64,000 nucleotides of DNA, from NCBI RefSeq assembly GCF_001669775.1, contig NZ_LXWK01000011.1, positions 1,302,001 through 1,366,000 of the forward strand. Reading direction: 5' to 3'. Numbering within the stretch: the first letter of the stretch is position 1; each line of letters opens with the position of its first letter. The notes under the pieces were generated by a model that was not told the origin of the DNA, searched no databases, and worked only from the letters and a program-made list of their open reading frames with translations. Shown in pieces: positions 14,664 to 29,440 of this stretch. The DNA comes from Rheinheimera sp. SA_1 (lineage in GTDB: Bacteria > Pseudomonadota > Gammaproteobacteria > Enterobacterales > Alteromonadaceae). Made by a program: the position numbers and the translations under genes.

Positions 14664-16145
14664 ATGATAAAAAAAGTTGTGATTGCCGGCGGCGGCACTG
14701 CCGGCTGGATGGCAGCCGCTTTATTAAAAAAAGTGCTGCAACAGCAAATCGACGTCGAGCTGGTTGAATCCGACGATATCGGCATTATTGGCGTTGGTGA
14801 AGCAACCATTCCGCCTATACAGGTGTTTAATCAATATCTTGGCTTGGATGAAGCGGAGTTTTTACGCGAAACCAAAGCCACCATTAAACTCGCGATTAAA
14901 TTTGAAAACTGGAGAACCCAGGGCGAAAGTTATTACCACACCTTTGGCGCTCCGGGCGCGCAATTAGGCTTTTGCCCGTTCCAGCATTATTGGTTACAGG
15001 CGAAAAAGGCTGGCCTTACCCAGTCGTTATGGGATTTTGACCTGAATTTCCTCTGCGCCGAGCAAGGCAAATTTAACATTATCAAAACCCCGAACCCGCT
15101 GTACGAAATGCCCTATGCCTATCATTTTGATTCTGGTTTATATGGCCGCTATTTACGCAAAATCGCCGAAAAATCTGGTGTGGTGCGCACTGAGGGGTTG
15201 ATTGAGCTGGTGCAACAAGATGCGATCAGCGGCCATATCCGCAGTTTGCATTTGAAAGACGGCAGGCAAATCCACGGTGATTTATTTATCGACTGTACCG
15301 GATTACGCGCGTTATTGGTCCGAAAAACCTTAGGCGTGGCGTTTGAAGACTGGAGCCATTATTTACCGGCCAACAGCGCCATCGCAGTACCTAGCGAACG
15401 CTTCGCCCAAACCTTGCCTTATACCCGCAGCATTGCGCATAAAGCCGGTTGGCAGTGGCGTATTCCGCTAACCCACCGCAATGGTAACGGCTTGGTGTAT
15501 TGCTCGGATTATTTATCCGACGATGAAGCCCATCACACCTTGATGGGAAATCTCGATGCAAATGCTTTGGCCGAGCCGCGCAAAATCTCATTTCAAACCG
15601 GCCGCACCACCGAGCAATGGTGCAAAAATGTGGTATCCATTGGGCTGTCTTCTGGTTTTCTCGAACCGCTGGAATCGACCAGCATCCATTTAATCCAGTC
15701 GGGTATTGTGCGGCTACTCAAAATGTTTCCGCATCAGCAGATTTCGCAAACGGTGATTGACTATTACAACGCTGATTCCAAACAGGAATTTGAGACCATC
15801 CGCGACTTTATTGTGCTGCACTACCATGTCAATCAACGTGATGATTCTAAGTTCTGGCGCGATATGCGCCACATGGCAATCCCACCACGACTGGCTGAGA
15901 AAATCGCGTTATTTCAGCAAACTGCCGCCATTTTTAATGATCAGAATGACATTTTCCGCGACGCCTCCTGGCTGCAGGTGATGCTGGGCCAGGGCATCCA
16001 GCCCCTGGAGCATCACCCAGCGGCGAAAGCTGTGCCGGACGCGCAACTGTTGCAAACACTGCAGAAAATCCGTGACGCCAAACAACAACCGCTGGCACAG
16101 ATGCTGTCGCATGATGAATTTCTCCTGCGCTATACCAAGCAATAA
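14664..16145 (+). CDS. Flavin-dependent tryptophan-halogenase family protein
   Basis: 493 residues. The FAD site AGGGTAGW is at residues 8-15 and the halogenase motif WQWRIP is near residue 263. The lysine that binds hypohalous acid in PrnA-type enzymes is present as Lys79 in IKFENWR, and the partner glutamate lies in SSGFLEPLES (Glu334). With both key residues and WxWxIP intact it should be able to oxidise halide, given reduced flavin from a separate reductase. The natural substrate of members located between TonB receptors and glycoside hydrolases is not established; free tryptophan is not a safe assumption. It follows the receptor by 139 bases and precedes GH97 by about 30 bases, so it belongs to that unit. 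Confidence 0.9.
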   Translation: MIKKVVIAGGGTAGWMAAALLKKVLQQQIDVELVESDDIGIIGVGEATIPPIQVFNQYLGLDEAEFLRETKATIKLAIKFENWRTQGESYYHTFGAPGAQLGFCPFQHYWLQAKKAGLTQSLWDFDLNFLCAEQGKFNIIKTPNPLYEMPYAYHFDSGLYGRYLRKIAEKSGVVRTEGLIELVQQDAISGHIRSLHLKDGRQIHGDLFIDCTGLRALLVRKTLGVAFEDWSHYLPANSAIAVPSERFAQTLPYTRSIAHKAGWQWRIPLTHRNGNGLVYCSDYLSDDEAHHTLMGNLDANALAEPRKISFQTGRTTEQWCKNVVSIGLSSGFLEPLESTSIHLIQSGIVRLLKMFPHQQISQTVIDYYNADSKQEFETIRDFIVLHYHVNQRDDSKFWRDMRHMAIPPRLAEKIALFQQTAAIFNDQNDIFRDASWLQVMLGQGIQPLEHHPAAKAVPDAQLLQTLQKIRDAKQQPLAQMLSHDEFLLRYTKQ

Positions 16146-16175
16146 CCAGCTTCTGCTTTGATGAAGGACTATAAG

Positions 16176-18649: not shown

Positions 18650-19355
18650 ATGATTAATGACACTTTAATTCTGGTTTTCATTTCAAACAATCCACAACAA
18701 TTGATGCCATTATGGCAAGTTCTGACCAAAGAATATCAATGCATGGTCACCGACAGTATGCACAATGTTGAATTACACAGTCTCAAAAAAAATGACTGTA
18801 TTTATCATCGAAGAAGAAAGTAGCTTTATTCTGGCGCAACAGCTGCTGGCAGAGTGCCTTCAGGCATCGGCCATTATTCATCTGCACAGTCACACGTTCC
18901 GCTTAACCGGCCCGCTGGAGCGCGCGTCGATTGAACAATTTATGCAGGTCTATCAAAAAATATTATTACCACTCCCGCAACAACACCTCAATGTTTCCTC
19001 TTGCAATGCGCCGCCACTCAGTCGCAAACACAAAGTGCTGGTGGAAAAAACCTGCCTTTACATTCAACAGCATCTGGAGCAACCGCTGACGCTAAGCTCG
19101 ATCAGTAAAGCGATGAATACCAATCGCAACAGTTTAGCCAAAGCATTTAAAAAGGAGCTAAATATCGGGGTATCCGCCTGGTTGCGCGCACAGCGGATGC
19201 AGAAGGCCCGGCAACTGTTGGTCGATACCACCTTAAGTATTCAGGAAATCTCTGCACGGCTGGGCTATCCGCTGCAGGCCAATTTTTCCACCTCTTTCAA
19301 AAGTCTGTTTAATCAGACTCCGAAACAAATCCGCCAGGATCTCAATGATGTTTAG
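18650..19355 (+). CDS. AraC-family regulator apparently split by an A8 frameshift
   Basis: The C-terminal part is a clear AraC-type double helix-turn-helix: LTLSSISKAMNTNRNSLAKAF and LSIQEISARLGYPLQANFST, ending TPKQIRQDL. The frame carrying it can start only at ATG 18765, which has no ribosome site. A different frame starts at ATG 18650 with AGAGGG 7 bases upstream and runs MINDTLILVFISNNPQQLMP to a stop at 18823. The two join exactly if one A is removed from the run of eight at 18785-18792, giving HSLKKMTVFIIEEE. So the intact protein would be about 234 residues with a short N-terminal domain. The shift could be a sequencing error, a mutation or programmed slippage. It lies between the sugar locus and the reb locus and could serve either. 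Confidence 0.75.
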
Positions 19356-19361
19356 AGCACC

Positions 19362-19434
19362 ATATATACTCAAAATCATTGAAGATTCGGGTAGGCGGCC
19401 AACAGCCCCGGAATCTTCAAGGATGAAGGGGATA
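19362..19434. repeat. Dispersed palindromic intergenic repeat, copy C
   Basis: ATATATACTCAAAATCATTG at the left and AATCTTCAAGGATGAAGGGG at the right are the usual ends, enclosing GAAGATTCGGGTAGGCGGCC. It begins 7 bases after the AraC stop, so it may also act as a transcript end. Confidence 0.65.
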
Positions 19435-19599
19435 GTGGTCAGATCGCGCCACGGCGTGTGCGCCACTGGCCGGTTTACACCACCGGTCTGCACAGCGCCC
19501 CCCGGATCGCCGACTGCCTGGTGCATAACCGGCGCAGTAGCAACGCAATTCCGATGCAGTTTTGCAGGTGCCGGGGGCACAGGCAGCAACCCTGGGGGA

Positions 19600-19616
19600 T
19601 TGGCACGTATCTGGCT
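19600..19616 (+). promoter_or_regulatory. Sigma-54 (-24/-12) promoter of the rightward reb accessory unit
   Basis: TTGGCACGTATCTGGCT matches the consensus YTGGCACGRNNNTTGCW at nearly all fixed positions, with GG and GC exactly 10 bases apart. It would start transcription near 19627, about 70 bases before the gene at 19696. Confidence 0.7.
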
Positions 19617-19642
19617 TCTGTTCTGGCTTTTACGGCGCAGTT

Positions 19643-19674
19643 TTATACCCGTCATCCTTGAAGATACGGGTAAA
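19643..19674. repeat. Half copy of the dispersed repeat, copy D
   Basis: TTATACCCGTCATCCTTGAA followed by GATACGGGTAAA. It carries only one end of the element, itself folding as ACCCGT/ACGGGT, and lies in the predicted leader downstream of the sigma-54 promoter. Confidence 0.5.
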
Positions 19675-19695
19675 TGCGCTGACAGCGGAGGTTTT

Positions 19696-20109
19696 ATGCA
19701 GATAGATCCGATCCTCGTGATCAGCTTAATCAAGCAATGCAATGCGGATGCCCAAAGCGCCGAGCTGCTACTGCACTGGCTGAAGCAGGCCAACTTGTTG
19801 TGTTGCCAGAGCCACGGCGACGCCGTATCCGCGCCATTAGTCCGGCGGTTAACTGCAGAACTCGGTCCCATTTTGCAGGCGTTGGCGGATCTGAGCGGCG
19901 ATCCGGCACAACAGGCGGCATGTCAGCAGCTATTCAGTCAGATTGTGCTGTTTTACCGCGACCTGAACCGTTACGACGGCGATTCCGGGCCAAGGCAAAC
20001 CACCGCTGCAAAGTCTGTTAGCTGCCTACCGGCGCTGGATAGCGGCACAAATGGCACCACAGCAACGGTGCCTGTGGACAGCGCGCAAAGCTATAACCGA
20101 TATGACTAA
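19696..20109 (+). CDS. Hypothetical protein, reb-locus accessory gene
   Basis: 137 residues. The start is set by GGAGG five bases before ATG (MQIDPILVISLIKQCNADAQ). The first 95 residues are predicted helical, with LLLHWLKQANLLCC and LTAELGPILQALADLSG; the last 35 are Ser/Thr/Gly-rich and probably disordered. I recognise no family. It is the first of three rightward genes behind a sigma-54 type promoter, with 12 bases to the next gene, and faces the leftward reb genes. Shared control with the R-body genes suggests a part in R-body formation, but no function can be assigned. Confidence 0.7.
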   Translation: MQIDPILVISLIKQCNADAQSAELLLHWLKQANLLCCQSHGDAVSAPLVRRLTAELGPILQALADLSGDPAQQAACQQLFSQIVLFYRDLNRYDGDSGPRQTTAAKSVSCLPALDSGTNGTTATVPVDSAQSYNRYD

Positions 20110-20121
20110 CAGGAATTAAAA

Positions 20122-20652
20122 ATGGCAGCCACCCCTTTGAATACAATTAATTTTCTGAGCCTGAATGTGCTGTTACAACAAACGCTGGCCTTTGCAACGG
20201 ACAACCCCTATCAGCAAAGACCGCTCAGCCCTGCCCGGCTGGAGGCATTTGGCGCACAGATGCAGCAACTGTTTATTTTCAGCGAGCGCTGGCAGTTGCT
20301 GCCAGAACACATCAGCCTGTCGCAGGCTGAGCAGGTGGCTGCTTTATATCCAGACACCCAAAGTGCTCTGATTGATTTATTGTACAGCTGTCCGCAGCCC
20401 TCCGAAGCAGAGCACTGGTTCGATTATCAGCGGGAGTTCCGGGCCCGCACCCAGCAAATCAACGACCTTAGCCGTTTGCTGTGCTGGCACCAGCAGTTGT
20501 ATCAGCAATTGCTAAGCCACTTCCCGCAGCTGCCGCTGCCGGACACCACCCCAACGAGCAACTCCGATGCTGCAACAGCCTCCATCACTGAAGCCGCAAG
20601 CGAGCCATCTGCGACCAACTTAGCGCCGGTGTTGCCCGCGCTGCTGCTGTAA
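20122..20652 (+). CDS. Hypothetical protein, reb-locus accessory gene
   Basis: 176 residues, start supported by AGGA about 8 bases before ATG. Rich in Gln, Leu and aromatic residues, with helical stretches such as FGAQMQQLFIFSERWQLLPE and SRLLCWHQQLYQQLLSHFPQ, followed by a Pro/Thr/Ser/Ala tail from about residue 138. No signal peptide or membrane segment. No family recognised. It is the middle gene of the three-gene rightward unit. Confidence 0.65.
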   Translation: MAATPLNTINFLSLNVLLQQTLAFATDNPYQQRPLSPARLEAFGAQMQQLFIFSERWQLLPEHISLSQAEQVAALYPDTQSALIDLLYSCPQPSEAEHWFDYQREFRARTQQINDLSRLLCWHQQLYQQLLSHFPQLPLPDTTPTSNSDAATASITEAASEPSATNLAPVLPALLL

Positions 20653-20664
20653 CAGGCGCTGGTG

Positions 20665-20901
20665 ATGGCATCCGATAAACAGGTGGCAGTATTTGATCGT
20701 TTTGGCTGGTACTGGCAACCTGCCAACTGGTTACAGCAGATGTCGCCACAGGACGCAGTCACCGCCACCCGGCAGGCCATTGATTTATCGGCAATAACCG
20801 AGGTACTACAATCAGAGGCGGTCCAACAGCAACAACGGGCGGCAGCAAAACGTAGTGTGATGCAGCATCTGCTGGATTCACTGGAACAGCAGCGGTTTTA
20901 A
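20665..20901 (+). CDS. Small hypothetical protein, reb-locus accessory gene
   Basis: 78 residues (a GTG one codon upstream, 20662, is also possible). MASDKQVAVFDRFGWYWQPA is followed by a helical, Gln-rich second half ending LLDSLEQQRF. It follows the previous gene by about 12 bases and no strong ribosome site is visible, so it probably depends on coupling. Unknown family. The end faces the 3' end of a leftward Reb-like gene across about 100 bases without a clear terminator. Confidence 0.55.
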   Translation: MASDKQVAVFDRFGWYWQPANWLQQMSPQDAVTATRQAIDLSAITEVLQSEAVQQQQRAAAKRSVMQHLLDSLEQQRF

Positions 20902-21005
20902 ACAAGCAACGGCAGCCAGCAGCAGACACAACCAGCCAAGCCGGGCTAATATGTTGCCGCCTGGCCGGGCACGCCTGCCACTGAGTCCGCGTTTCACTAA
21001 GGAGG

Positions 21006-21437
21006 TTAAGATTGCTCCGGCTTGGCCGGTGGGGATAAAAAATAACTGAATACCCTTCCCGGCAGCGAATGTTTGCCAGGGCCCGGCGCACCGGCCGCCG
21101 CAGCTTGCGGGGGCGGATTATTCTCCGCGCGGGTTTGGACGCTGGCCTTGCTAACTCCACCGGCAAAGGCTTTGATCACATCAGACTCTTCATTCCCCAT
21201 GCTCAGACGTGCCGCATTGACCACCTCACTGTATTGTTTACTCAGCGTGGGATTTTGCAGCCACTTAGCATAAGCAACTCCCATGGCCACCATGTTCACC
21301 GTGTTCTGATTACGGTATGCATCCACTTCGTTTTGTGCCGCCAGCGCGATCGACTGGGCAATCGACGCGCCGGCGGCCTCTTCCGCCGTCAGGCCCAGCT
21401 TCGAACTTGGTGGCGTTTGCTGTTTTGATTCAGTCAT
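21006..21437 (-). CDS. Reb-like protein, long variant
   Basis: 143 residues. The core SIAQSIALAAQNEVDAYRNQ and NTVNMVAMGVAYAKWLQNP is plainly paralogous to the 96-residue protein at 24658-24948 (SVNQSIALAVQSAVDLMRNL, TTVIGVASAAWL). The arrangement of an Ala-rich helix with SIALA and a following NT..V.GVA stretch looks like a distant version of the RebB fold, but the APAMAMG motif is absent, so membership is inference. The tail from about residue 100 is Ala/Pro/Gly-rich. It is the last gene of the leftward reb run. Confidence 0.6.
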   Translation of the reverse strand: MTESKQQTPPSSKLGLTAEEAAGASIAQSIALAAQNEVDAYRNQNTVNMVAMGVAYAKWLQNPTLSKQYSEVVNAARLSMGNEESDVIKAFAGGVSKASVQTRAENNPPPQAAAAGAPGPGKHSLPGRVFSYFLSPPAKPEQS

Positions 21438-21483
21438 ATGCGGTTCTCATTGGTTAGTGGCTGTCGCGATTTCCCGGCGGATG

Positions 21484-21741
21484 TCAGCCTGGGTTTGCCA
21501 TCTGCATTTTGACCTGGGCCAGAAATTCGCTCAGGGTGTTCAGACCATCTGCATCAATACTGCTTTGCAGACAGCTGCCGGCCTTCAGCGGTTCTGTCGG
21601 ACCGATCTGTACGGACAGCAACAAGCGATTTTGTTGCCGACTGAAATCAATGGACCATTGCGCCTGCGCATTGTTGGCAGTCTGGTCAAATGACGCTTTG
21701 AGACAATTAAATATCTCGGCGGCTGGTGGTGTCGTGGGCAT
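21484..21741 (-). CDS. Small hypothetical protein within the reb gene run
   Basis: 85 residues with AGGAG eight bases upstream of ATG. Predicted mixed fold: IFNCLKASFDQTANNAQAQW then a two-strand stretch RQQNRLLLSVQIGPTE and a C-terminal helix. It does not resemble the Reb proteins and I recognise no family. Its place between Reb-like genes, on the same strand with gaps of about 45 bases, suggests a dedicated assembly or regulatory partner. Confidence 0.6.
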   Translation of the reverse strand: MPTTPPAAEIFNCLKASFDQTANNAQAQWSIDFSRQQNRLLLSVQIGPTEPLKAGSCLQSSIDADGLNTLSEFLAQVKMQMANPG

Positions 21742-21786
21742 AGCAGACTCCTGAAATCACAAATGAATACATAGGTCCGGATCGGT

Positions 21787-21996
21787 CTATGAACTCAGAA
21801 TTTTGTTACAAACCTGCACCATCGCCGAATTAGCCAGCGTCTGTGCCGCATATTGGTTTGAGGTGTTATTTAGCATCGTCAATGAGGTGGCGTTGACCAA
21901 CGCCCCCAGCGACAGCGTCTGCAGAGTTTCATTACTCTGACTTTGCACTTCGTCATTGATGGCAACTGAGCTTTTGATGTAATCGGTGTCGGACAT
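21787..21996 (-). CDS. Divergent Reb-like protein
   Basis: 69 residues from the ATG at 21996 (AGGT about 8 bases upstream); the frame is open further but without a site. MSDTDYIKSSVAINDEVQSQ is followed by LGALVNATSLTMLNNTSNQY and a final AMVQVCNKIL. The layout (short N-terminus, Gly-Ala-Leu turn, two helices, Asn/Gln-rich link) resembles RebB without the APAMAMG box. It follows the four close RebB copies after a 118-base gap. Assignment to the Reb superfamily is inference. Confidence 0.55.
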   Translation of the reverse strand: MSDTDYIKSSVAINDEVQSQSNETLQTLSLGALVNATSLTMLNNTSNQYAAQTLANSAMVQVCNKILSS

Positions 21997-22114
21997 AATA
22001 GATACCTGTCTGATGGTCATCCGTTGAGCCACAGCGCAAACAGATGTGCGGGTCAGGATAAATGCCTCCTGAAAAACGCCCGCCACGGGCGCTTTTCAAA
22101 GAGTGCAGCTTTGG

Positions 22115-22354
22115 TTACTTGTTCTGGGCAAACAACTTGGTGACACCCAAAGTGGTCGCCGCCTGGTATGCCACGTTGGCCTGCTGCTGCGCATACACCG
22201 CATTGGCCGCCGCCATCGCCACTGAATTGCCAATGGTCTGGTACAAACTACCCATCGCCATCGCTGGTGCTTCGGCCAGTACTTTGGTATTGGCAATCGT
22301 GACTGCATCAATAATGGCGCCATTGACTGCTGTTGGTTGAGATGTGCTACTCAT
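22115..22354 (-). CDS. RebB-family R-body protein, copy 1
   Basis: 79 residues. It has the full RebB ('killing trait') pattern: VNGAIIDAVTIANTKVL, then APAMAMGSLYQTIGNSVAMA and AANAVYAQQQ, ending in TLGVTKLF. RebB-type proteins are the building blocks of R-bodies, insoluble protein ribbons rolled into cylinders that unroll when triggered, first known from Caedibacter killer symbionts of Paramecium. AGGAG precedes the ATG. The 40-residue core is almost identical to copies 2 and 4, pointing to recent tandem duplication or gene conversion. It is the fourth of four close copies in reading order. Confidence 0.93.
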   Translation of the reverse strand: MSSTSQPTAVNGAIIDAVTIANTKVLAEAPAMAMGSLYQTIGNSVAMAAANAVYAQQQANVAYQAATTLGVTKLFAQNK

Positions 22355-22385
22355 CGTGTTCTCCTTTTACACTGATAAAACCCGG

Positions 22386-22628
22386 TTATTTGTTATCTGC
22401 GAACAGCTTGGTCACACCAAGGGTGCTGGCGGCCTGATAGCCGACATTGGCCTGCTGCTGCGCGTACACTGCGTTTGCCGCGGCCATTGCCACTGAATTG
22501 CCAATGGTCTGGTATAAACTACCCATCGCCATCGCCGGCGCTTCGGCCAGCACTTTGGTATTGGCGGTCACTATTGAATCGACAACAGCGCCGTTGACCG
22601 CTGTTGGCTGAGCTGGAGCATTTGACAT
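22386..22628 (-). CDS. RebB-family R-body protein, copy 2
   Basis: 80 residues, differing from copy 1 mainly at the N-terminus (MSNAPAQPTAVNGAVVDSIV) and near the end (LFADNK in place of LFAQNK). The central APAMAMGSLYQTIGNSVAMA is the same. AGGAG lies upstream of ATG and the gap to copy 1 is 31 bases. Having several nearly equal subunits suggests a ribbon made of mixed protomers, or dosage for very high expression. Confidence 0.93.
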   Translation of the reverse strand: MSNAPAQPTAVNGAVVDSIVTANTKVLAEAPAMAMGSLYQTIGNSVAMAAANAVYAQQQANVGYQAASTLGVTKLFADNK

Positions 22629-22684
22629 ATTGCATTCTCCTGAAGTGGCTTCCGCCTACTTACTGGTGGTTGAATCGTTGTTGA

Positions 22685-22915
22685 TCACTTATTCTGACTG
22701 AACAATTTAGTGATCCCTAAGGTACCGGCAGACTGAGAGGTGACCCAGCCCTGTTGCTGGGCATAGACGGCGTTTGCCGCTGCCATCGCCACAGAATTGC
22801 CAATCGTCTGATACAAATTTCCCATTGCCATCGCCGGAGCAACAGCAACGACTGACGCGTTAGAGCCGGCGACCGCATCAACGATGGCTCCGTTAACTTC
22901 ACATGGTTGTGACAT
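22685..22915 (-). CDS. RebB-family R-body protein, copy 3 (most divergent of the four)
   Basis: 76 residues: MSQPCEVNGAIVDAVAGSNA then VAPAMAMGNLYQTIGNSVAM and YAQQQGWVTSQSAGTLGITK. It keeps the RebB box but replaces NTKVLAEAP with NASVVAVAP and carries GWV where the others have ANV. It is the only close copy with a Cys near the N-terminus. These differences suggest a distinct role in the ribbon, not just dosage. GGGAG precedes the ATG. Confidence 0.92.
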   Translation of the reverse strand: MSQPCEVNGAIVDAVAGSNASVVAVAPAMAMGNLYQTIGNSVAMAAANAVYAQQQGWVTSQSAGTLGITKLFSQNK

Positions 22916-22956
22916 GAGCTAATCTCCCGATGGACGAGACTGAAACCACCGCGTGG

Positions 22957-23187
22957 TTACGAGTTTTGTGCGAACAGTTTGGTCACCCCAAGGGTGGTCG
23001 AAGCCTGATACACCACATTGGCCTGTTGCTGGGCATAAACCGCATTGGCCGCCGCCATGGCAACAGAATTCCCGATAGTCTGATACAAACTGCCCATCGC
23101 CATTGCGGGGGCTTCAGCCAGAACTTTAGTATTGGTAATAGTGACAGAGTCGACGACCGCGCCATTTACAAGTTGTGCACTGGACAT
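22957..23187 (-). CDS. RebB-family R-body protein, copy 4, first of the promoter-proximal set
   Basis: 76 residues: MSSAQLVNGAVVDSVTITNT, then APAMAMGSLYQTIGNSVAMA and the TTLGVTKLFAQNS end. GGAGAAAGATT before ATG is a strong ribosome site. It is the first gene after the sigma-54 type promoter at 23261-23277, with a leader of about 60 bases, so it and the next three copies are probably the most strongly expressed genes of the locus. Confidence 0.93.
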   Translation of the reverse strand: MSSAQLVNGAVVDSVTITNTKVLAEAPAMAMGSLYQTIGNSVAMAAANAVYAQQQANVVYQASTTLGVTKLFAQNS

Positions 23188-23483
23188 AATCTTTCTCCAT
23201 GGTTTTTGAACCGCTAGGACATTGTTTTCGAATCCGTTTTCAGGGACTCTGCCTTAACAGTGCATTGGCTGTGCCAGTGAAAAAACTGCAACTAAAATAC
23301 ATATCCATTTGTTTTATATGTATTTTTAAATTTAATTGTGGCAGTAAAACTATCTGGTGACACCAAGCAGCGGTTCATTTCATCCACTTCAGAAATTTCG
23401 GCGGTCTGATCCGGCTACCGGGCAATGGCCGGTCGAAAAATCGTACTCAACCACGCTACGCTGGATCTAAAGCACCGAACAGT
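23188..23483. promoter_or_regulatory. Intergenic promoter region of the leftward RebB set
   Basis: This is the only sizeable gap in the leftward reb run. The half next to the RebB genes contains the sigma-54 type promoter; the stretch 23283-23335 is strongly AT-rich, as expected for bending near an activator-dependent promoter. No gene and no clear terminator for the preceding gene were found. Confidence 0.6.
23261..23277 (-). promoter_or_regulatory. Sigma-54 (-24/-12) promoter of the RebB gene set
   Basis: Read on the minus strand, CTGGCACAGCCAATGCA matches YTGGCACGRNNNTTGCW at all but two fixed positions, with GG and GC exactly 10 bases apart. Predicted start near 23250, about 63 bases upstream of RebB copy 4. 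Confidence 0.75.
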
Positions 23484-24068
23484 TTAAAAAATCGGCAGCA
23501 GCCGGACATAACGCGCGGGCAGCGGGAAACCGACGATCTGGCTGCCGCCGGGGGTTTGCTGAAAATGCTGATGCACAAAGATGGCGGCCAGATTCGGATT
23601 GGTCAGGGTGCTGACAATGGCAAGATCATGCTGTGCCTGAGCCATGGCGACGATATTGCCAAGCGTTTCGGCTATCAGGCGATCGGCGTAATGCATTGCC
23701 TGTTGTGGCCACAGCGGACTGAACAAACCAAAGTCCGCCGGTAAGATGTTCAGATAAGTCAGATAAAGGACGTGGTCACGGCGCATCAGCACCAGTTCAG
23801 AGCAGATCGATTGGTCTGGCAGTATCAGCTGTTGCCAGTACCAGGGCAGATCCGATGGCAGAGGTGTGGATTGCAGCGCGCTGGTATTGCCGGACGATAA
23901 CGGCGGCTGATATGGCGTCAGCCAGTCGCTTTGCATATCGCGGTAGATGCGGGGCCGCTGTTGCTGTAACAGCGTCAGCTGGGCTGTAATACGACTGCCC
24001 AGCGTCAACTGTAAATCCTGTTCAAGCCGGGCTTTGGGCAACAGGCTTTGGCTGGTCAGCAAACTCAT
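23484..24068 (-). CDS. Hypothetical protein of the reb locus
   Basis: 194 residues. No signal peptide. The N-terminal half is Gln/Leu-rich helical (LTLGSRITAQLTLLQQQRPR); the middle has aromatic beta-like stretches (DHVLYLTYLNILPADFGLF) and the C-terminal third contains ETLGNIVAMAQAQHDLAIVS and FVHQHFQQTPGGSQIVGFPL. The stretch GNIVAMAQAQ faintly recalls the Reb core GNSVAMAAANAVYAQQQ, so a divergent Reb-related segment is possible. No family recognised. It is separated by only 11 bases from the upstream gene and is last of the block transcribed with the activator. Confidence 0.6.
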   Translation of the reverse strand: MSLLTSQSLLPKARLEQDLQLTLGSRITAQLTLLQQQRPRIYRDMQSDWLTPYQPPLSSGNTSALQSTPLPSDLPWYWQQLILPDQSICSELVLMRRDHVLYLTYLNILPADFGLFSPLWPQQAMHYADRLIAETLGNIVAMAQAQHDLAIVSTLTNPNLAAIFVHQHFQQTPGGSQIVGFPLPARYVRLLPIF

Positions 24069-24079
24069 ACCCGGGTGGC

Positions 24080-24397
24080 TCAGTCCCCGGCGTACATCTG
24101 CCGGATCGCCTGCAGCTCAGCGGATTCTAGCGACGGCTCTGTATTCGGCTGCGGTGCCGGTTCTGTCGCGTCTACCGCGGCAAATAACTGTTCCTGCTGC
24201 GCATACAGCTGGCCGACATATTGTTGCATCTGCGTAGCAGATAAAACGCCTGGTTCGCTAATCACATTGGGGAAAACCAACGCCACCGGCTGCACAGGCT
24301 GCATATCAAACAGCGCCAGCGCTTGTTGCAATAAGTCCTGGCCACTGGCGACTGTCTGCTGCGCTACTGCATTTTCGGGTTTATCCGGCTGCATCAT
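24080..24397 (-). CDS. Small hypothetical protein of the reb locus
   Basis: 105 residues, acidic and Gln/Pro-rich: SGQDLLQQALALFDMQPVQP, then ATQMQQYVGQLYAQQEQLFA and a low-complexity Pro/Glu segment before the end LQAIRQMYAGD. Probably helical with a disordered link. Three bases separate it from the Reb-like gene upstream and eleven from the gene downstream. Unknown family. Confidence 0.6.
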   Translation of the reverse strand: MMQPDKPENAVAQQTVASGQDLLQQALALFDMQPVQPVALVFPNVISEPGVLSATQMQQYVGQLYAQQEQLFAAVDATEPAPQPNTEPSLESAELQAIRQMYAGD

Positions 24398-24400
24398 GGT

Positions 24401-24613
24401 TTAGCGCCAGCTATGCAACACGCCGGCTACGGCCGTCGCCTGATGCGTGATGTTGGCCTGTTGTTGGGCAAATACCTGATTCAGCGTCGCCAGACCGATG
24501 TTATATGCCAGCTGCTGATACTGGCTGCCCATGGCCATCGCTGGCGCCATCCCCACGGTCAGCGCGTTGACCAGTGCAACACTTTGCACCACGGCGTGAT
24601 TCATCTCTGTCAT
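24401..24613 (-). CDS. RebB-family R-body protein, shorter divergent copy
   Basis: 70 residues. It keeps the defining box, GMAPAMAMGSQYQQLAYNIG, then LATLNQVFAQQQANITHQAT, but the N-terminus is short (MTEMNHAVVQSVALVNALTV) and the LGVTKLF end is replaced by VAGVLHSWR. AGGAG lies 7 bases before ATG. It is in a separate group from the four close copies, beside the regulatory gene, so it may act in nucleation or capping, not as bulk subunit. That role is inference. Confidence 0.88.
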   Translation of the reverse strand: MTEMNHAVVQSVALVNALTVGMAPAMAMGSQYQQLAYNIGLATLNQVFAQQQANITHQATAVAGVLHSWR

Positions 24614-24657
24614 ATATTCTCCTTGTTTTCAGGTGGTTGCGCGGGCAGCGGTTCCAA

Positions 24658-24948
24658 TCAATCCGGTTTCAGATCCGTCAGGACGCCTGCACCGACTGTG
24701 CCCACTTTTGCCAGGTTTTCCACCGCAAAAGTGATGGTTTTGGTGGCATTTTCGATAATGTCTTTGTACGCCGTATTTCCTGGTTCGGCCAGCCAGGCGG
24801 CCGACGCCACACCGATGACTGTGGTCTCAATCGTATTTAGATTTCGCATTAGATCGACTGCACTTTGTACTGCGAGCGCAATGGACTGATTCACCGACGG
24901 CTGGATCAGTTGCTGGGCAGAACTGGTCGCATTATTGCTTTCACTCAT
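24658..24948 (-). CDS. Reb-like protein, short variant of the 143-residue paralogue
   Basis: 96 residues: QPSVNQSIALAVQSAVDLMR then NTIETTVIGVASAAWLAEPG. It aligns without gaps over about 60 residues with the core of the protein at 21006-21437. The start overlaps the upstream gene by 8 bases. The two paralogues bracket the RebB genes. As for the longer form, the relation to RebB itself is by general layout (SIALA helix, NT..V.GVA turn) and is not proven. Confidence 0.6.
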   Translation of the reverse strand: MSESNNATSSAQQLIQPSVNQSIALAVQSAVDLMRNLNTIETTVIGVASAAWLAEPGNTAYKDIIENATKTITFAVENLAKVGTVGAGVLTDLKPD

Positions 24949-25333
24949 CGCCCTGTGCTCCCTCGCTGTCTGCGCTTTGTACCTGCTGCGCCATCGTCGT
25001 ATCCACTTGCTGTAAAAATGCCTGCATATAAGCCAGCGTGACCGTCGGTTGATTCACATCAGCCGGCAGCAGCGTCACAGCTTGCAGCGCCTTGAGATAA
25101 GCGGCATCAGCTTCCAGCACGGCAATCACTGCCAGCCCATTGGCAGCGACCGGCTGTTGCAGACTGTCCAGCGCGGCCTGCATGGCGTTAAAAGTGTCGG
25201 CGGCCTGGTTTTGCTGGGTTTTCACCGCACCTTGTAACGCTTTGCTGACATCAATAAATGCGCGAAATGCCTTCAGCTCATCCGCTGCAAACCGGGCTGC
25301 GGCTTCTGCGATCGCGGCAACTGACACACTCAT
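24941..25333 (-). CDS. Ala-rich helical hypothetical protein of the reb locus
   Basis: 130 residues, about one quarter Ala, predicted fully helical: AAIAEAAARFAADELKAFRA, ALQGAVKTQQNQAADTFNAM and LEADAAYLKALQAVTLLPAD. No Cys, no membrane segment. The end overlaps the next gene. The composition resembles coiled-coil scaffold or chaperone-like proteins, but no family is recognised. Confidence 0.6.
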   Translation of the reverse strand: MSVSVAAIAEAAARFAADELKAFRAFIDVSKALQGAVKTQQNQAADTFNAMQAALDSLQQPVAANGLAVIAVLEADAAYLKALQAVTLLPADVNQPTVTLAYMQAFLQQVDTTMAQQVQSADSEGAQGDE

Positions 25334-25351
25334 ATGCAGACTCCACAGTAG

Positions 25352-25705
25352 TTAACCATAGCGGCTGTACTGGTCCAATTGCTGCTGCAAGGACTGCCGC
25401 ATCTGTTCAAAACGCGCGTGCACCTCCTGAAAATAAGAGGTGTGACCGCCCAGCGCATTGCTGTGCAGGCTTTGCAGAAACACCGCCTGGGCCTCGGCTG
25501 CCCAGTCCGGCCATACGGACTGCATGATGTTGCTGTCAATAAAAAACACCTGCTGCGCCGTGGGATCTGTCGCAGTGCCTGCCGCCGCATCCGACGACGT
25601 CGCCTCCAGCGGCCCGTCAAATGCTGTGGCACTGATCGGCTGACATTCGTAGTCACCATCAGCAGTTTTCACCGCATCAAACAGCTGGACCGGTTTTGTC
25701 ATCAT
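25352..25705 (-). CDS. Small hypothetical protein of the reb locus
   Basis: 117 residues from the first of two tandem ATGs at 25705, set by AGGAGG five bases upstream; the frame is open further but would overlap the preceding gene more deeply. MMTKPVQLFDAVKTADGDYE opens a short beta-like part, then a Ser/Ala/Thr linker, QQVFFIDSNIMQSVWPDWAA and a C-terminal helix FEQMRQSLQQQLDQYSRYG. It starts inside the upstream gene (29-base overlap), so it is translated with it. Unknown family. Confidence 0.6.
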   Translation of the reverse strand: MMTKPVQLFDAVKTADGDYECQPISATAFDGPLEATSSDAAAGTATDPTAQQVFFIDSNIMQSVWPDWAAEAQAVFLQSLHSNALGGHTSYFQEVHARFEQMRQSLQQQLDQYSRYG

Positions 25706-26042
25706 CACTCCCTCCTCGCTGTGGACCAGGCGTAGCCAGCACACTGTTCATCGTCGTGTGGATCCGCTGCAGCAACAGGTCCATGTTGCCAATATTGCCC
25801 TGCTGCAACTGCAACACACCAGCCAGCGCCAATGTACTGCCTGCTGCGCTGCCTTCTTCACTGCTAAGCGTTGCGGGCGCGGCCACCGGCTGTTGATCTT
25901 GCAACTGCTGTACCATCTGGCTGAGCTTGTGTTGCTGCTCAAGCATCAGTTGTGCCAGTTGCTGGCTGGAATCAGTTTTCAGTTGTTGCAGTTGTTGACG
26001 GGCGGCATCTGCCGGTGCCATGGGTTGAACGGTCTGGCTCAT
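25677..26042 (-). CDS. Gln-rich coiled-coil hypothetical protein of the reb locus
   Basis: 121 residues. The first half is a strong coiled-coil candidate (AARQQLQQLKTDSSQQLAQL, MLEQQHKLSQMVQQLQDQQP); the second has LALAGVLQLQQGNIGNMDLL and a charged, disordered end. ATG overlaps the stop of the sigma-54 activator by four bases, so the two are translationally coupled. No family recognised. Confidence 0.6.
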   Translation of the reverse strand: MSQTVQPMAPADAARQQLQQLKTDSSQQLAQLMLEQQHKLSQMVQQLQDQQPVAAPATLSSEEGSAAGSTLALAGVLQLQQGNIGNMDLLLQRIHTTMNSVLATPGPQRGGSDDDKTGPAV

Positions 26043-27040
26043 AGCATGACCTCGTGCGCCGCACCGCCGCGGGTCTGGATTTGCGCCAGCCGGCGCTCAA
26101 TCACTTTACGATGCACCCCCAGCAGCCGCGCCGCTTCTGTCTTATTGCCATTGCTGCGTTCGACCGCTTGGGCAATCAGCGCGTCATAAATGGTTTTCAG
26201 TTTGTTGTTGACCGGCATTTCAATAATTTCCTGCGCCACCCGCACCGCCCAGTCGACATGTTCTTCACACATCGCCAGTTGCTGGATGCTTTGCGCAGTT
26301 ACTTCAGGTCCATCTGCCAGTACCGCCAGCTTGTCGACACAATTCTTCAGCTGCCGGATGTTGCCGGGCCAGTCAGCGAACTGCAGCAATTTCAGCGCAC
26401 AGCCACTGAAACGGATCCGGTTGCTCAGGCGGGCAAAATACTGCGCCAGCAGCGGAATATCATCCCGCCGCTGCTGCAGCGCCGGGACCGTGATCTCAAA
26501 CAGATTGATCCGATACCATAAGTCTTCGCGGAACAGCCGTTGCTGCACCTGCTCGGCCAGATTGACATGCGAAGCGCTGATGACCCGTCCGGTAAATGCT
26601 TCGGTTTCACTGCTACCGATCCGGCTGAACTGGCGGCTTTCCAGCACCCGTAATAATTTGGCCTGGTGGATCAACGGCAGTTCGGCGATCTCATCCAGGA
26701 ACAGCGTGCCGAAATTGGCCTGATAAAAAAAACCTTGTTGCTTTTTGTCGGCACCGGTAAAGGCACCTTTTTCGTGGCCGAAAAACAGCGATTCAAATAA
26801 ATTCTCCGGAATAGCGCCACAGTTCACGCTGACAATGCGCCCCAACCGGCCACTTTTCTGGTGAATGGCCTGGGCGATCAGATCTTTGCCGGTACCGGTT
26901 TCGCCATGCAGGAACACAGCCCCGTCACTGAGCGCAATTTTCGCCAAATACGCCGCCAGCGTTTTCATCGCTTTATTCTGGCTGATGACACCCGGCAATA
27001 CCTCCGAACATATCGTGGTTAAATCATTTGCAGCATTCAC
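26039..27040 (-). CDS. Sigma-54-dependent activator without sensory domain (PspF-like layout)
   Basis: 333 residues. The AAA+ domain starts almost at once: Walker A GETGTGKD (46-53), the sigma-54 contact loop GAFTGA (92-97), Walker B TLFLDE (112-117) and sensor II WPGNIRQLKN (224-233). A Fis-type helix-turn-helix closes the protein (NGNKTEAARLLGVHRKVIER, 297-316). There is no receiver, GAF or PAS domain, so its activity must be set by its amount or by a separate partner, as PspF is by PspA. The intact GAFTGA loop means it should act with sigma-54. Three -24/-12 promoters within 8 kb (19600, 23261, 27348) are its natural targets. It heads the leftward block of accessory reb genes. Confidence 0.92.
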   Translation of the reverse strand: MNAANDLTTICSEVLPGVISQNKAMKTLAAYLAKIALSDGAVFLHGETGTGKDLIAQAIHQKSGRLGRIVSVNCGAIPENLFESLFFGHEKGAFTGADKKQQGFFYQANFGTLFLDEIAELPLIHQAKLLRVLESRQFSRIGSSETEAFTGRVISASHVNLAEQVQQRLFREDLWYRINLFEITVPALQQRRDDIPLLAQYFARLSNRIRFSGCALKLLQFADWPGNIRQLKNCVDKLAVLADGPEVTAQSIQQLAMCEEHVDWAVRVAQEIIEMPVNNKLKTIYDALIAQAVERSNGNKTEAARLLGVHRKVIERRLAQIQTRGGAAHEVML

Positions 27041-27259
27041 TCAGGGCTCTCCGTGTCCAAATGAAAATGATGCTAGCACCGCCGTGCAATGTACCGCTTT
27101 TGAATTCATCTTTATTTTTTTTGAATTTGTCACTAATTCAAATTAAGTTTCAGCGCATGAACAGACTAAATCATCCAGTACACTGCTATACATGGACAAT
27201 TCCGTCCACATAAAAAACACTCACCGCAACAATAGCCCGCCACCACAACTACATACAAT

Positions 27260-27271
27260 GCTAGCGCTAGC
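27260..27271. promoter_or_regulatory. Perfect 12-bp palindrome, candidate upstream activating site
   Basis: GCTAGCGCTAGC lies about 77 bases upstream of the sigma-54 promoter at 27348. I could not find the same sequence near the other two sigma-54 promoters, so its link to the activator is uncertain. Confidence 0.3.
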
Positions 27272-27347
27272 CACAAACAAAACACAAACATCTGATTACA
27301 TTGAAAATCAATAATAATCATAGGATAAATGCTATATGCCAGACACA

Positions 27348-27364
27348 CTGGCAGACTTTTTGCC
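27348..27364 (+). promoter_or_regulatory. Sigma-54 (-24/-12) promoter of the AT-rich gene pair
   Basis: CTGGCAGACTTTTTGCC has TGGCA and TTGC with GG and GC exactly 10 bases apart; positions 7-9 and 17 deviate from consensus. The T-rich spacer is common in strong sigma-54 promoters. Predicted start near 27374, about 50 bases before the gene at 27425. Confidence 0.7.
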
Positions 27365-27424
27365 TTCATTGATCTGTGCATCGCAGTCTGACGATTAAAA
27401 TACCCTTATCATTTGGAGACCATC

Positions 27425-28309
27425 ATGAAGAAATATATCTGCAGCCCGCTCAGTGACATGGCCACACTGTTTGACAATGTATTTGGTGCAAACTTTACCA
27501 GGGCTGTGATCAGCGCAGAAAAACCCAAAACCAGAGAATGGATCCAGCCATTTTTTTCCAACCGGACTGACGCGCTGATATTCCAGGATATTTTGATCGG
27601 CAGGTTATCTATTGATGACAACTCGGTTGACAAGCTTGATACCGAGCTGATGACCAGTGATATGTATTACAAAATTTCGCTGGCGGTACTAAACAAACTG
27701 CGCAAGGACACTGAAACTTTTCTGGCAGAATCAGCACCGCAAATGAAGCTGGAAGGCAACGAATGTACCTTATTAATCTGTGGGTTAGGTAATGCCGGCG
27801 TCCCTTTGCTGTATAACGGTGTGAACCAGTGGCTGGACAGCACGCAGATAGCAAAGTACCTGGACTCTCTGCAAATCGAGGATCCGGCCACATTGAAGCT
27901 GTATCTGACCAGCAATGCCAGCGCAGCCTCGAAACAGTACACCTATGCCAATATGGAGCAGCTGCGTGAGCAGTTCAGCAACAACCCCGAATCGCAGAAT
28001 GCACTTTTACTATTGACGATTGGCACGCAAGGCAGCCTGGCGGCTGAACTGCAAAAAGCTCTGCTGAACAAAAGCGTGGCGACTAAACACGATTTTTCCA
28101 CCACAGAAGTCTATGGCTATTTATTCCCTTGCCTGACACAAGGTGTTGAATGCTATGGCATTGATCTGGAGTCACAAAGTCTGACCGATTACAAATCTCT
28201 TAGCATGACGGCGATGGTCAGCGTGTATACCAAAAACCGCCAGTATTACCAGCAAATTCCAATCCGGCGTAGCCTGACCAAGGTCAAGATGACCCCTCCC
28301 AGCCTATGA
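27425..28309 (+). CDS. Hypothetical protein, first gene of the AT-rich pair in the reb locus
   Basis: 294 residues from ATG 27425 (GGAG 6-7 bases upstream). No signal peptide or membrane segment. Stretches include MKKYICSPLSDMATLFDNVF, ECTLLICGLGNAGVPLLYNG, SQNALLLLTIGTQGSLAAEL and a basic C-terminus (IPIRRSLTKVKMTPPSL). The parts LLICGLGNAGVP and LLLLTIGTQGS could be strand-turn-helix units of an alpha/beta fold. No family recognised. It lies divergent from the activator gene, directly behind a sigma-54 type promoter, so co-expression with R-bodies is expected. GC content is lower than in the surrounding genes, suggesting separate acquisition. Confidence 0.75.
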   Translation: MKKYICSPLSDMATLFDNVFGANFTRAVISAEKPKTREWIQPFFSNRTDALIFQDILIGRLSIDDNSVDKLDTELMTSDMYYKISLAVLNKLRKDTETFLAESAPQMKLEGNECTLLICGLGNAGVPLLYNGVNQWLDSTQIAKYLDSLQIEDPATLKLYLTSNASAASKQYTYANMEQLREQFSNNPESQNALLLLTIGTQGSLAAELQKALLNKSVATKHDFSTTEVYGYLFPCLTQGVECYGIDLESQSLTDYKSLSMTAMVSVYTKNRQYYQQIPIRRSLTKVKMTPPSL

Positions 28310-28414
28310 ATCTGCCCATTCCGGCCGTTTTTTTTCAGCTCGGCGGTGAAGCACTGGTTTTGCAGAATTTATCGCAGGATCAGTCGCCTCCAGCATTCAA
28401 CATCGAGGGATATC

Positions 28415-29440
28415 ATGAGCGAAGGCAGCAGAACAATTTATGACCAGATCAAAGACAGAATACAAAGCGGTAGCAATTCGCTGACTGTTTACAAGAATGT
28501 GCTGATTGAACAACGCCGGATATATGGCGACCTTGCATTAAATAAAGTTTTATATGGGCATGATTGTGCTTACGATTTCATAAAACATAAAAACATTGAA
28601 AATGCATACTTTTTCATGCGACCAAAATATCGTGTTGAAAATTTTATTTTTGACCAATTTTCCAAGCTGACCCGACCAGCCATTTATTACACTGGAAGCG
28701 GCGTTGGCGTTATAATGGATAAAGTAGTTGGCTGCACCTACCGCTCAGCACACCCAGCTAATATATTAACTATTTTTCAAAATCCGGATCTAACCAGAAG
28801 ATACTTCGCTCAGCGCAAAGCGCTTTATCAGACATATTATAATGCAATCAACTTTAACAGCATTTTAAGTACCGGCTGGAGTTTTCAAAAGATCTGGCTA
28901 CACCAGATGAAACAATCCTTTGCTGTCCAAAAATATATCTGGAATAACACAATAACCTCACAGTACACAATCATGCAGCCGAATATGCTGATTTTGGATA
29001 AGTCAAAGCAGCTGGCCGGTGGCTATTGCGATGTAATTACCGACCGGTTTGCAGAGATTGTTGGTTGGGTTGGCATCGGCGTGCTCGCCTTTACGCTACC
29101 GAAATCTGTCCGCACCAACACCAAGGTCGCCACTCAACTCTGGTCATCCAGGTTGTTTGTTAATTACCTGCCGTTTATGTTTCGCATACCAACCACGATG
29201 TTCGTGATCAAACCGCCGGTGAAAATATTTTATAACCCTCGTGTGTTCGCCGGCTTACTGCTCTACAAGTATCTGACTGGACTGGGCCAAAGAATTGAGG
29301 CTTCGCTCGAGCTTCAGCAGAACGAGCCGGAGATCCACCGGTTGCTGGTGAGCCAAGACCGCGATACTTACGCCGCCTCGGGCGCCAATGACCTGACAAC
29401 TTCATTGAAGAAACCAAAAAGTAATGGCTTGAATTCATAA
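28415..29440 (+). CDS. Hypothetical protein with hydrophobic segments, second gene of the AT-rich pair
   Basis: 341 residues. Start 28415 is chosen because GAGGGA lies 5 bases upstream (MSEGSRTIYDQIKDRIQSGS); the open frame before it has no site. Rich in Tyr, Phe, Ile, Asn and Lys. Hydrophobic stretches are IVGWVGIGVLAFTLP (about residue 215) and RVFAGLLLYKYLTGLG (about 285), each able to enter a membrane, while the ends are polar. No catalytic motif or known family. Its codon use and AT content differ from the neighbours. Placement at the end of a sigma-54 unit in an R-body locus makes it a candidate for a toxin-like cargo or a membrane-acting partner, but that is conjecture. Confidence 0.75.
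   Translation: MSEGSRTIYDQIKDRIQSGSNSLTVYKNVLIEQRRIYGDLALNKVLYGHDCAYDFIKHKNIENAYFFMRPKYRVENFIFDQFSKLTRPAIYYTGSGVGVIMDKVVGCTYRSAHPANILTIFQNPDLTRRYFAQRKALYQTYYNAINFNSILSTGWSFQKIWLHQMKQSFAVQKYIWNNTITSQYTIMQPNMLILDKSKQLAGGYCDVITDRFAEIVGWVGIGVLAFTLPKSVRTNTKVATQLWSSRLFVNYLPFMFRIPTTMFVIKPPVKIFYNPRVFAGLLLYKYLTGLGQRIEASLELQQNEPEIHRLLVSQDRDTYAASGANDLTTSLKKPKSNGLNS

What the first reader, a model, noticed from the sequence alone, without database searches (positions are those of the whole stretch)
19600..29440. Large R-body (reb) locus with its own sigma-54 activator
Seen: five proteins with the RebB box APAMAMG, at least three further Reb-like paralogues, around nine small unknown proteins, and an activator with GAFTGA. 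Known: RebB proteins form R-bodies, rolled protein ribbons that extend on a trigger and are tied to killing of hosts in Caedibacter. Known reb loci are usually described with a few structural and assembly genes. Inferred: this locus encodes a larger, tightly switched version in a free-living gammaproteobacterium, and may be a poorly described contractile or membrane-rupturing device.
Basis: partly seen in the sequence, partly recalled or inferred. Interest (0 to 1): 0.95.

Follow-up and report, generated by a model that had tools for sequence, protein, structure and literature searches.

The report
R-body gene cluster switched by sigma-54
This is a gene cluster for R-bodies (rolled-up protein ribbons that spring open); unlike the described R-body clusters that were compared here, it carries its own sigma-54 activator and a matching promoter, a pairing that recurs in four bacterial phyla and points to an all-or-nothing on-switch.

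Summary
Five proteins pass the Pfam RebB cut-off, three more are divergent Reb relatives, the activator has an intact GAFTGA loop, and nine small proteins match no family above cut-off. The linkage is not chance: 14 of 75 reb loci fetched by RebB similarity carry such an activator in or next to the cluster, and with the window's copy they form one clade (100/100) against 14 other activators of the host, across four phyla. New here: a -24/-12 sigma-54 promoter 89 nt before the first rebB (23261-23276, minus). Upstream of reb genes, 7 of 15 activator-type loci and 0 of 59 control loci score 17.5 or more; over whole clusters, 10 of 15 against 9 of 59 reach 18.2, so single sites can be chance. Sites also precede the accessory operon and, in relatives, large genes beside C-family proteins. 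Against: four Shewanella loci have only weak candidates, and stretches from 10 other reb-bearing genomes of an unselected sample lack this activator type. Verdict: a new variant of a known kind. Ribbon formation, trigger, target and payload are untested. The conserved core is 18765-27040.

The parts
18765..19355 (+). A: AraC-type regulator, 196 aa
   Evidence: NCBIfam AraC-family hits, below equivalog cut-offs; family profile hits in 9 of 10 gammaproteobacterial activator-type loci, window included, not in L057
19601..19616 (+). sigma-54 promoter candidate TGGCACGTATCTGGCT, 95 nt before B
   Evidence: score 18.2, p=0.005 in 200 shuffles; same site in R. riviphila, similar site in Idiomarina B-C; none in the 60 nt looked at in Planctobacterium
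19696..20109 (+). B: small protein, 137 aa, no family
   Evidence: 4 of 10 gamma loci
20122..20652 (+). C: predicted helical bundle with disordered tail; second copies beside large proteins in relatives
   Evidence: 6 of 10 gamma loci
20662..20901 (+). D: small protein, 79 aa
   Evidence: 4 of 10 gamma loci
21006..21437 (-). E: divergent Reb relative with proline-rich tail
21484..21741 (-). F: conserved small protein, 85 aa
   Evidence: 10 of 10 gamma loci plus L061 and L062
21787..21996 (-). G: short divergent Reb relative
   Evidence: RebB 14.8 bits, below cut-off
22115..22354 (-). H: RebB structural protein
   Evidence: PF11747 1.5e-23
22386..22628 (-). I: RebB structural protein
   Evidence: PF11747 1e-20
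22685..22915 (-). J: RebB structural protein
   Evidence: PF11747 1.1e-19
22957..23187 (-). K: first RebB structural protein of the array
   Evidence: PF11747 4e-23
23261..23276 (-). sigma-54 -24/-12 promoter TGGCACAGCCAATGCA, 89 nt before K
   Evidence: 0 of 300 shuffles as good; TGGCACA invariant in four aligned upstream regions, two of them Rheinheimera
23294..23326 (.). perfect 11+11 nt inverted repeat with 11 nt between arms, just upstream of the promoter: candidate activator site
   Evidence: not tested against chance
23484..24068 (-). L: conserved protein, predicted GNAT-like fold in part
   Evidence: 9 of 10 gamma loci, 10 of 10 with an L057-seeded profile; model pLDDT 81.9; 47 PDB matches at E<=1e-3, TM 0.30-0.44 by query
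24080..24397 (-). M: conserved small protein, 105 aa
   Evidence: 10 of 10 gamma loci
24401..24613 (-). N: RebB, divergent
   Evidence: PF11747 3.2e-11
24658..24948 (-). O: divergent Reb relative, related to E
   Evidence: similar 116-aa protein beside reb genes in an Azospirillum plasmid
24941..25333 (-). P: conserved protein, 130 aa
   Evidence: 10 of 10 gamma loci
25352..25705 (-). Q: conserved small protein, 117 aa
   Evidence: 9 of 10 gamma loci
25677..26042 (-). R: Gln-rich protein whose start codon overlaps the stop of S
   Evidence: 4 of 10 gamma loci; ATGA overlap
26039..27040 (-). S: sigma-54 activator, AAA+ with GAFTGA plus Fis-type HTH, no N-terminal sensor domain
27349..27364 (+). 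sigma-54 promoter candidate TGGCAGACTTTTTGCC, 76 nt before T
   Evidence: score 17.5, 0 of 200 shuffles; R. riviphila version scores 15.7 (p=0.115) and lacks the -12 GC
27425..28309 (+). T: unknown protein, 294 aa; possible co-regulated cargo (inference)
   Evidence: only in window and R. riviphila among sequences searched
28415..29440 (+). U: unknown protein, 341 aa; possible co-regulated cargo (inference)
   Evidence: only in window and R. riviphila among sequences searched

Best explanation
An R-body locus of a sigma-54-switched type. SHOWN by sequence: five RebB proteins; activator S of one reb-linked clade with intact GAFTGA; -24/-12 sites before the main rebB array and before B-C-D; one RpoN in the host genome. 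INFERRED: S makes RNA polymerase-sigma-54 open these promoters, so that K-J-I-H-G-F-E, the ribbon genes, come on together only when S is active. S has no sensor domain, like PspF (recalled), so the trigger must be the abundance of S (candidate: the AraC protein A) or a partner that holds S in check (candidate: R, whose start overlaps the stop of S). The operon S-R-Q-P-O-N-M-L supplies accessory and assembly proteins. Reb proteins build a coiled ribbon that extends on a trigger and ruptures membranes, probably against an engulfing grazer (probability about 0.4, by analogy with Caedibacter and Pseudomonas). B-C-D, and perhaps T-U, are co-expressed cargo or cargo partners (about 0.35).
For: RebB hits. 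One clade of 15 reb-linked activators, support 100/100, against 14 host activators and 6 other rows. Linkage in 14 of 75 fetched loci. Promoter before K: 0 of 300 shuffles, kept in Rheinheimera and Idiomarina. Scores of 17.5 or more upstream of reb genes: 7 of 15 activator-type loci against 0 of 59 controls; further strong sites in L074, L076 and L077. Whole-cluster scan, both strands, same rule for both sets: 18.2 or more in 10 of 15 against 9 of 59 (Fisher p=1.9e-4), 0.145 against 0.029 sites per kb. Gap test at 16.5 or more: 17 of 83 against 7 of 339, p=2.5e-8. B or B-C site in Rheinheimera and Idiomarina. RpoN present once; 15 places in the genome match S, itself included.
Against: The four Shewanella loci keep S with GAFTGA, but their gaps before the reb arrays score 11.5-13.5 and 16.0 (L060, 280 nt away); the 16.7 sites of the automated scan in L056 and L058 lie inside the preceding reb gene; only a 15.5-score site conserved in 4 of 4 lies before a NusG-like gene (p 0.027-0.043). 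Planctobacterium's site before K is poor (15.2, p=0.153); its best before a reb gene is 17.2, before N. In L076 and L077 the site is about 30 nt from the nearest ATG, of a glycoside-hydrolase-like gene, too close unless the start is later. Control clusters also hold sites: 19 of 59 at 17.5, and three control gaps at 18.2, none before a reb gene (L067, L068, L070). Mann-Whitney over all gaps p=0.52. The weights are mine, from a recalled consensus, and thresholds were set after seeing data. No site before S itself in the window (12.7, p=0.93). 0 of 10 other reb-bearing genomes of the unselected sample have this activator in the stretches fetched. No expression, ribbon or killing data exist here.
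Confidence: 0.72

Rival explanations
1. An ordinary reb locus that happens to lie beside an unrelated sigma-54 activator.
For: The host carries many such activators (15 matches); 0 of 10 other reb-bearing genomes of the unselected sample show one of this clade in the stretches fetched.
Against: The reb-linked activators form one clade across four phyla and, in the gamma loci, travel with L, M, P, Q, F; -24/-12 sites are enriched in their loci.
Confidence: 0.05
2. The locus is driven by the AraC-type protein A from a sigma-70 promoter; S is a side regulator or acts without sigma-54, and the -24/-12 sites are partly chance.
For: A-family profile hits in 9 of 10 gamma loci. Five other reb loci have an AAA+ domain without GAFTGA joined to an AraC HTH in one protein, so an AraC route exists. 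Shewanella lacks strong sites. Some control clusters hold strong sites too.
Against: GAFTGA is intact in S and its clade (GMFTGA in Desulfoluna); strong sites lie upstream of reb genes in 7 of 15 activator-type and 0 of 59 control loci.
Confidence: 0.17
3. The Reb proteins form an insoluble body with no killing function, for example a storage or resting-cell structure.
For: [quoted passage not shown] No toxin family is recognised in the window's locus.
Against: R-bodies act on hosts in PA14 and Azorhizobium (PMC8322103 abstract and Discussion; PMC5527310 abstract).
Confidence: 0.2

Closest known systems
Group 1 reb synteny (Raymann et al. 2013, PMC3583457)
   Same: Tandem RebB genes plus short divergent Reb relatives; an Azospirillum plasmid locus has a 116-aa protein similar to O beside its reb genes, which I take for HP1.2 from size and position.
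   Different: No counterpart of the roughly 360-aa HP1.1 found with two candidates, which are not similar to each other. In five reb loci that I take for this type the regulator is an AAA+ domain without GAFTGA joined to an AraC HTH, not a sigma-54 activator.
Group 2 / Pseudomonas aeruginosa PA14 reb cluster (PMC8322103, section on the cluster)
   Same: RebB-type structural genes with dedicated regulators in the cluster.
   Different: There the regulators are RcgA and the sigma factor FecI2; here a sigma-54 activator and an AraC protein. RapA was not searched for.
Azorhizobium caulinodans reb operon (PMC5527310)
   Same: Four reb genes under an activator encoded in the operon.
   Different: The activator RebR is of the Crp-Fnr kind, with PraR as repressor (abstract).
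PspF-type sigma-54 activators
   Same: AAA+ with GAFTGA, no N-terminal sensor domain (PspF chains among the PDB matches; PspF anatomy recalled).
   Different: Its own reb-linked clade (PspF itself was not in the tree); no PspA-type hit among the locus proteins in Pfam.

Membership tests
R-body (reb) locus | Several clustered genes above the RebB PF11747 cut-off | tested here: met
   5 proteins, 43.6-83.1 bits against cut-off 24
R-body (reb) locus | Reb signature motifs of PMC13430693 (QITD, KXXXD/E, NAV, QQQ) | tested here: inconclusive
   Q[IV]TD in 0 of 5 window proteins, and in 7 of 62 proteins of activator-type loci against 107 of 118 of the rest; QQQ in 61 of 62 against 103 of 118. Read in the sequences: KVLAE in H, I, K only; NAV in H, I, J, K, not N
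R-body (reb) locus | Forms coiled, extendable, SDS-insoluble ribbons | not testable with these tools
   needs microscopy or insoluble-fraction proteomics
Sigma-54 activator (bEBP) | AAA+ with GAFTGA loop and DNA-binding HTH | tested here: met
   PF00158 3.7e-60, PF02954 1.7e-8; GAFTGA
Sigma-54 activator (bEBP) | Cognate -24/-12 promoters and an RpoN in the genome | tested here: met
   sites; RpoN; function not shown
Group 1 reb synteny | HP1.1 to HP1.4 beside the reb genes | tested here: inconclusive
   O-like 116-aa protein shared with an Azospirillum locus; HP1.1 candidates from L041 and L050 had no counterpart; published seeds not available here
Group 2 reb synteny | sigma-factor gene and cyclic-nucleotide-binding regulator in the cluster | tested here: not met
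   only AraC-type and sigma-54-activator regulators recognised
Contractile injection system | sheath, tube and baseplate proteins | tested here: not met
   no such family above cut-off among proteins B to U in Pfam; A was scanned with NCBIfam only

The most novel reading that the evidence does not exclude
A cross-phylum class of R-body weapon under one sigma-54 command. A dedicated activator lineage switches on ribbon genes together with exchangeable payload genes (T-U in Rheinheimera; three unrelated families of 560-660 aa proteins beside C-family partners in Idiomarina and a Saccharospirillaceae, in Planctobacterium, and in Exilibacterium) and, in some hosts, a wall-degrading enzyme (phage-type lysozyme in Shewanella; a glycoside-hydrolase-like protein in L076 and L077). 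The cell is loaded to burst and deliver cargo in one all-or-nothing programme.
Probability: 0.3. Interest if true: 0.85.

Novelty: new variant of a known kind. Interest (0 to 1): 0.65.

Why it matters
How R-bodies are switched on, and what they deliver, is open in most bacteria that carry reb genes (own judgement from the papers read). A sigma-54 promoter is silent without its activator (recalled), so this locus offers a clean switch: expressing one protein, S, should turn the programme on, which makes R-body formation, release and targets testable in an environmental bacterium. The cargo candidates give something concrete to test for the old question of what the killing agent is. I found no paper joining R-bodies with sigma-54 regulation in the held library (searches; of the 6 papers listed I opened three; only 20 of 103 papers were listed, and those have no 'R-bodies' in the text; most subscription journals are not held).

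Tried and rejected
RebB protein K against plasmid and phage records by tblastn gave no match, and viral contigs gave no confirmed relative; so no mobile-element carrier was found for the window's type. Protein O matched 11 plasmid records (Azospirillum 7, Vibrio 3, Eleftheria 1); the three regions looked at hold reb loci of another type or, for Vibrio, are unannotated. The Idiomarina cargo candidate had no match in plasmids, phages or PDB sequences. T and U as ordinary neighbours of the order: rejected, neither is in the other 393 genomes searched. An empty insertion site was sought in one same-genus genome and not found: three window ORFs match the stretch (136-1641, 14664-16145, 16158-18218), none from the right side of the locus. 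ExsD similarity of C (E=0.029) was dropped: its model has no PDB match at E<=0.001. HrpB7/FliJ similarity of P is below cut-off and was not pursued. HP1.1 candidates did not match T or U. A sigma-54 site before S was sought and not found in the window. Rfam was not searched.
Full report
OBSERVATION. The interval holds a dense set of small genes, mostly on the minus strand. Five proteins exceed the Pfam RebB cut-off (H, I, J, K, N); G matches weakly. E and O are related to each other and reach the Reb family in iterated profiles. The box pattern occurs 5 times against 0.13 expected. S is a sigma-54 activator with GAFTGA and a Fis-type HTH. Nine small proteins match no family above cut-off. The conserved core runs from the AraC-type gene A (18765) to S (27040).

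ANATOMY. Three transcription units are suggested by layout: S-R-Q-P-O-N-M-L and K-J-I-H-G-F-E on the minus strand, separated by a 296-nt gap, and A then B-C-D on the plus strand. R starts in an ATGA overlap with the end of S; Q starts 29 nt inside R; O and P overlap by 8 nt. These are sequence facts; the operons are inferred.

CONSERVATION. A scan of genome contigs with a RebB alignment gave 206 confirmed places, of which the best 80 were kept, 75 distinct loci. Fourteen of the 75 carry an activator like S in or next to the reb cluster: L052 to L060, L064, L066, L074, L076, L077: Rheinheimera riviphila, Planctobacterium, Idiomarina, four Shewanella, Exilibacterium, a Saccharospirillaceae, two Desulfoluna, a Planctomycetota MAG, a Nannocystaceae MAG and a MAG titled Deltaproteobacteria. 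The set is biased towards the window's RebB type. Less biased: RebB occurs in 8 of 394 genomes of the order and 4 of 369 of the class, the own genome included in both. In the 12 stretches fetched for the 10 other reb-bearing genomes, some of them cut by contig ends, none has an activator of this clade; L041 and L050 have AAA+-AraC proteins, and L047 has an activator over 6 kb away and outside the clade. The two same-genus genomes of the sample have no RebB. A tree of the 15 reb-linked activators with 14 host activators and 6 other rows puts the 15 on one side of a branch with support 100/100; L041, L050 and one host row have long branches. In the ten gammaproteobacterial loci, window included, M, P and F are in 10; L in 9, or 10 with an L057-seeded profile; Q and A in 9; C in 6; B, D and R in 4.

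PROMOTERS. A -24/-12 site lies 89 nt before K; none of 300 dinucleotide shuffles matched it. TGGCACA is invariant in an alignment of four upstream regions, two of them from Rheinheimera. In an automated scan upstream of reb genes, 7 of 15 activator-type loci (window included) reach 17.5 and 0 of 59 control loci do, the best control being 16.7. Targeted scans find strong sites in L074, 52 nt before the ATG of a RebB as read from the printed sequence, and in L076 and L077 before a glycoside-hydrolase-like gene, there about 30 nt from the nearest ATG, which is too close unless the start is later. The controls had no such targeted scan, so I ran one rule over both sets (reb cluster plus 1.5 kb each side, both strands, coding included): 17.5 is reached in 12 of 15 against 19 of 59 loci (p=0.001), 18.2 in 10 of 15 against 9 of 59 (p=1.9e-4), 18.7 in 5 of 15 against 0 of 59 (p=1.9e-4); sites of 18.2 or more per kb are 0.145 against 0.029. 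Near relatives count as separate loci in these tests. Planctobacterium has 17.2 before N and only 15.2 before K. The four Shewanella have no strong site before their reb arrays; a 15.5-score site, conserved in 4 of 4, precedes a NusG-like gene. Gap by gap, over nine activator-type loci whose limits I widened by hand in five to take in cargo candidates, 17 of 83 gaps reach 16.5 against 7 of 339 in the 59 controls, whose limits were widened by 3 kb (p=2.5e-8); at 17.5 it is 9 against 3 (p=4e-5), at 18 it is 6 against 3 (p=0.0025); the whole distribution does not shift (p=0.52), as expected if only some gaps are promoters. On a rerun with slightly different limits (338 control gaps) the three strong control sites lie before unassigned genes in L067, L068 and L070, and two of the weaker four before reb genes. 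Sites also precede B in the window and R. riviphila and B-C in Idiomarina (18.2 each), not B in Planctobacterium (10.7 in the 60 nt looked at), and cargo candidates: Idiomarina 16.5 (p=0.055), Saccharospirillaceae 16.7 (p=0.01), Planctobacterium C2 16.7 (0 of 200 shuffles), Exilibacterium C genes 17.2 (p=0.02) and 17.5 (p=0.01). The site before T (17.5) is not kept in R. riviphila (15.7, without the -12 GC). The weights come from a recalled consensus and the thresholds were not preset.

POSSIBLE CARGO. C is predicted as a helical bundle with a disordered tail (mean pLDDT 76.6, core near 90), without a PDB match at E<=0.001. In four relatives a C-family gene lies beside a large protein: Idiomarina and Saccharospirillaceae share one family (45% identity); the Planctobacterium and Exilibacterium ones are unrelated to it and to each other by BLAST. 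None of the four has a Pfam match at E<=0.01; the three put to NCBIfam have none at 0.1. T and U lie where Idiomarina and Planctobacterium keep such genes, next to S, and are absent from the other 393 genomes of the order searched. That they are payload is inference. In Shewanella the genes ahead of N-M-L are a NusG-like protein (PF02357, 2.6e-16 in L055) and a phage-type lysozyme (PF00959, 2.3e-13 in L055, 1.6e-11 in L056; L058 and L060 by family search). L076 and L077 carry an Rv2525c-like glycoside-hydrolase domain protein. No wall hydrolase was recognised in the window's locus.

OTHER PARTS. L gave a model of pLDDT 81.9; its 47 PDB matches at E<=1e-3 are nearly all named acetyltransferases, at TM 0.30-0.44 by query. 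I see no canonical acetyl-CoA loop in the sequence (own reading, recalled motif), so activity is doubtful. RebB proteins of these loci share a near-invariant core around APAMAMGSLYQTIGNSVAMAAANAVYA (two stretches of it were the search patterns, so this is partly selected) and mostly lack the QITD motif that PMC13430693 calls a signature: 7 of 62 have Q[IV]TD against 107 of 118 in the other loci.

MECHANISM. Shown: genes, clade, promoter sites, RpoN. Inferred: S drives K-E and B-C-D through sigma-54; S, without a sensor domain, is held by a partner or limited by its own expression; ribbons form and extend; the cell bursts and cargo leaves. The last steps rest on analogy with Caedibacter and Pseudomonas (PMC8322103, Discussion).

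LITERATURE. Seen: PMC3583457 (abstract, Results parts 1 and 2 of 3, passages); PMC13430693 (abstract, Results, first of two parts of Discussion, passages); PMC8322103 (abstract, one Results section, Discussion); PMC5527310 (abstract, one Results section); PMC4340629 (passages); PMC12316311 (term search, no occurrence). Regulators named in what I read are a sigma factor and a cyclic-nucleotide-binding protein (Group 2), RcgA and FecI2, RebR and PraR. No sigma-54 link was found in the searches.

VERDICT. By sequence an R-body locus and a new variant: a sigma-54-switched type with a dedicated activator lineage, found in four phyla but, in the unselected sample, in no reb-bearing genome other than the window's own.

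Noticed in passing
window 19360-19670: A stretch between A and B shares end pieces with 99 matches scattered over the own genome, like a REP/BIME-type palindromic repeat (type recalled).
   Followed up: partly
L041:7150-8325, L050:17096-18649, L143:6762-7973, L144:15863-17512, L145:14766-16274: Five reb loci of another type carry a sigma-54-activator-like AAA+ domain joined to an AraC HTH in one protein; GAFTGA is absent in all five. It looks like an activator that left sigma-54.
   Followed up: partly
L055:6991-8087 and the same place in L056, L058, L060: NusG-like gene followed by a phage-type lysozyme gene ahead of the Shewanella reb gene set: possible antitermination and self-lysis.
   Followed up: partly
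L076:8567-9388, L077:8604-9356, L145:12267-12962: Rv2525c-like glycoside-hydrolase domain proteins near reb genes in three loci.
   Followed up: no
L061:5386-7782: A protein with sigma-70 regions 2 and 4 and TPR repeats lies upstream of reb genes in a Blastocatellia MAG.
   Followed up: no
L059:11835-13292: A 485-aa unnamed gene divergent from the cargo candidate also has a sigma-54-like site, score 16.7.
   Followed up: no
L067, L068, L070: Three control reb loci without a linked activator have an 18.2-score sigma-54-like site before an unassigned gene near the cluster.
   Followed up: no
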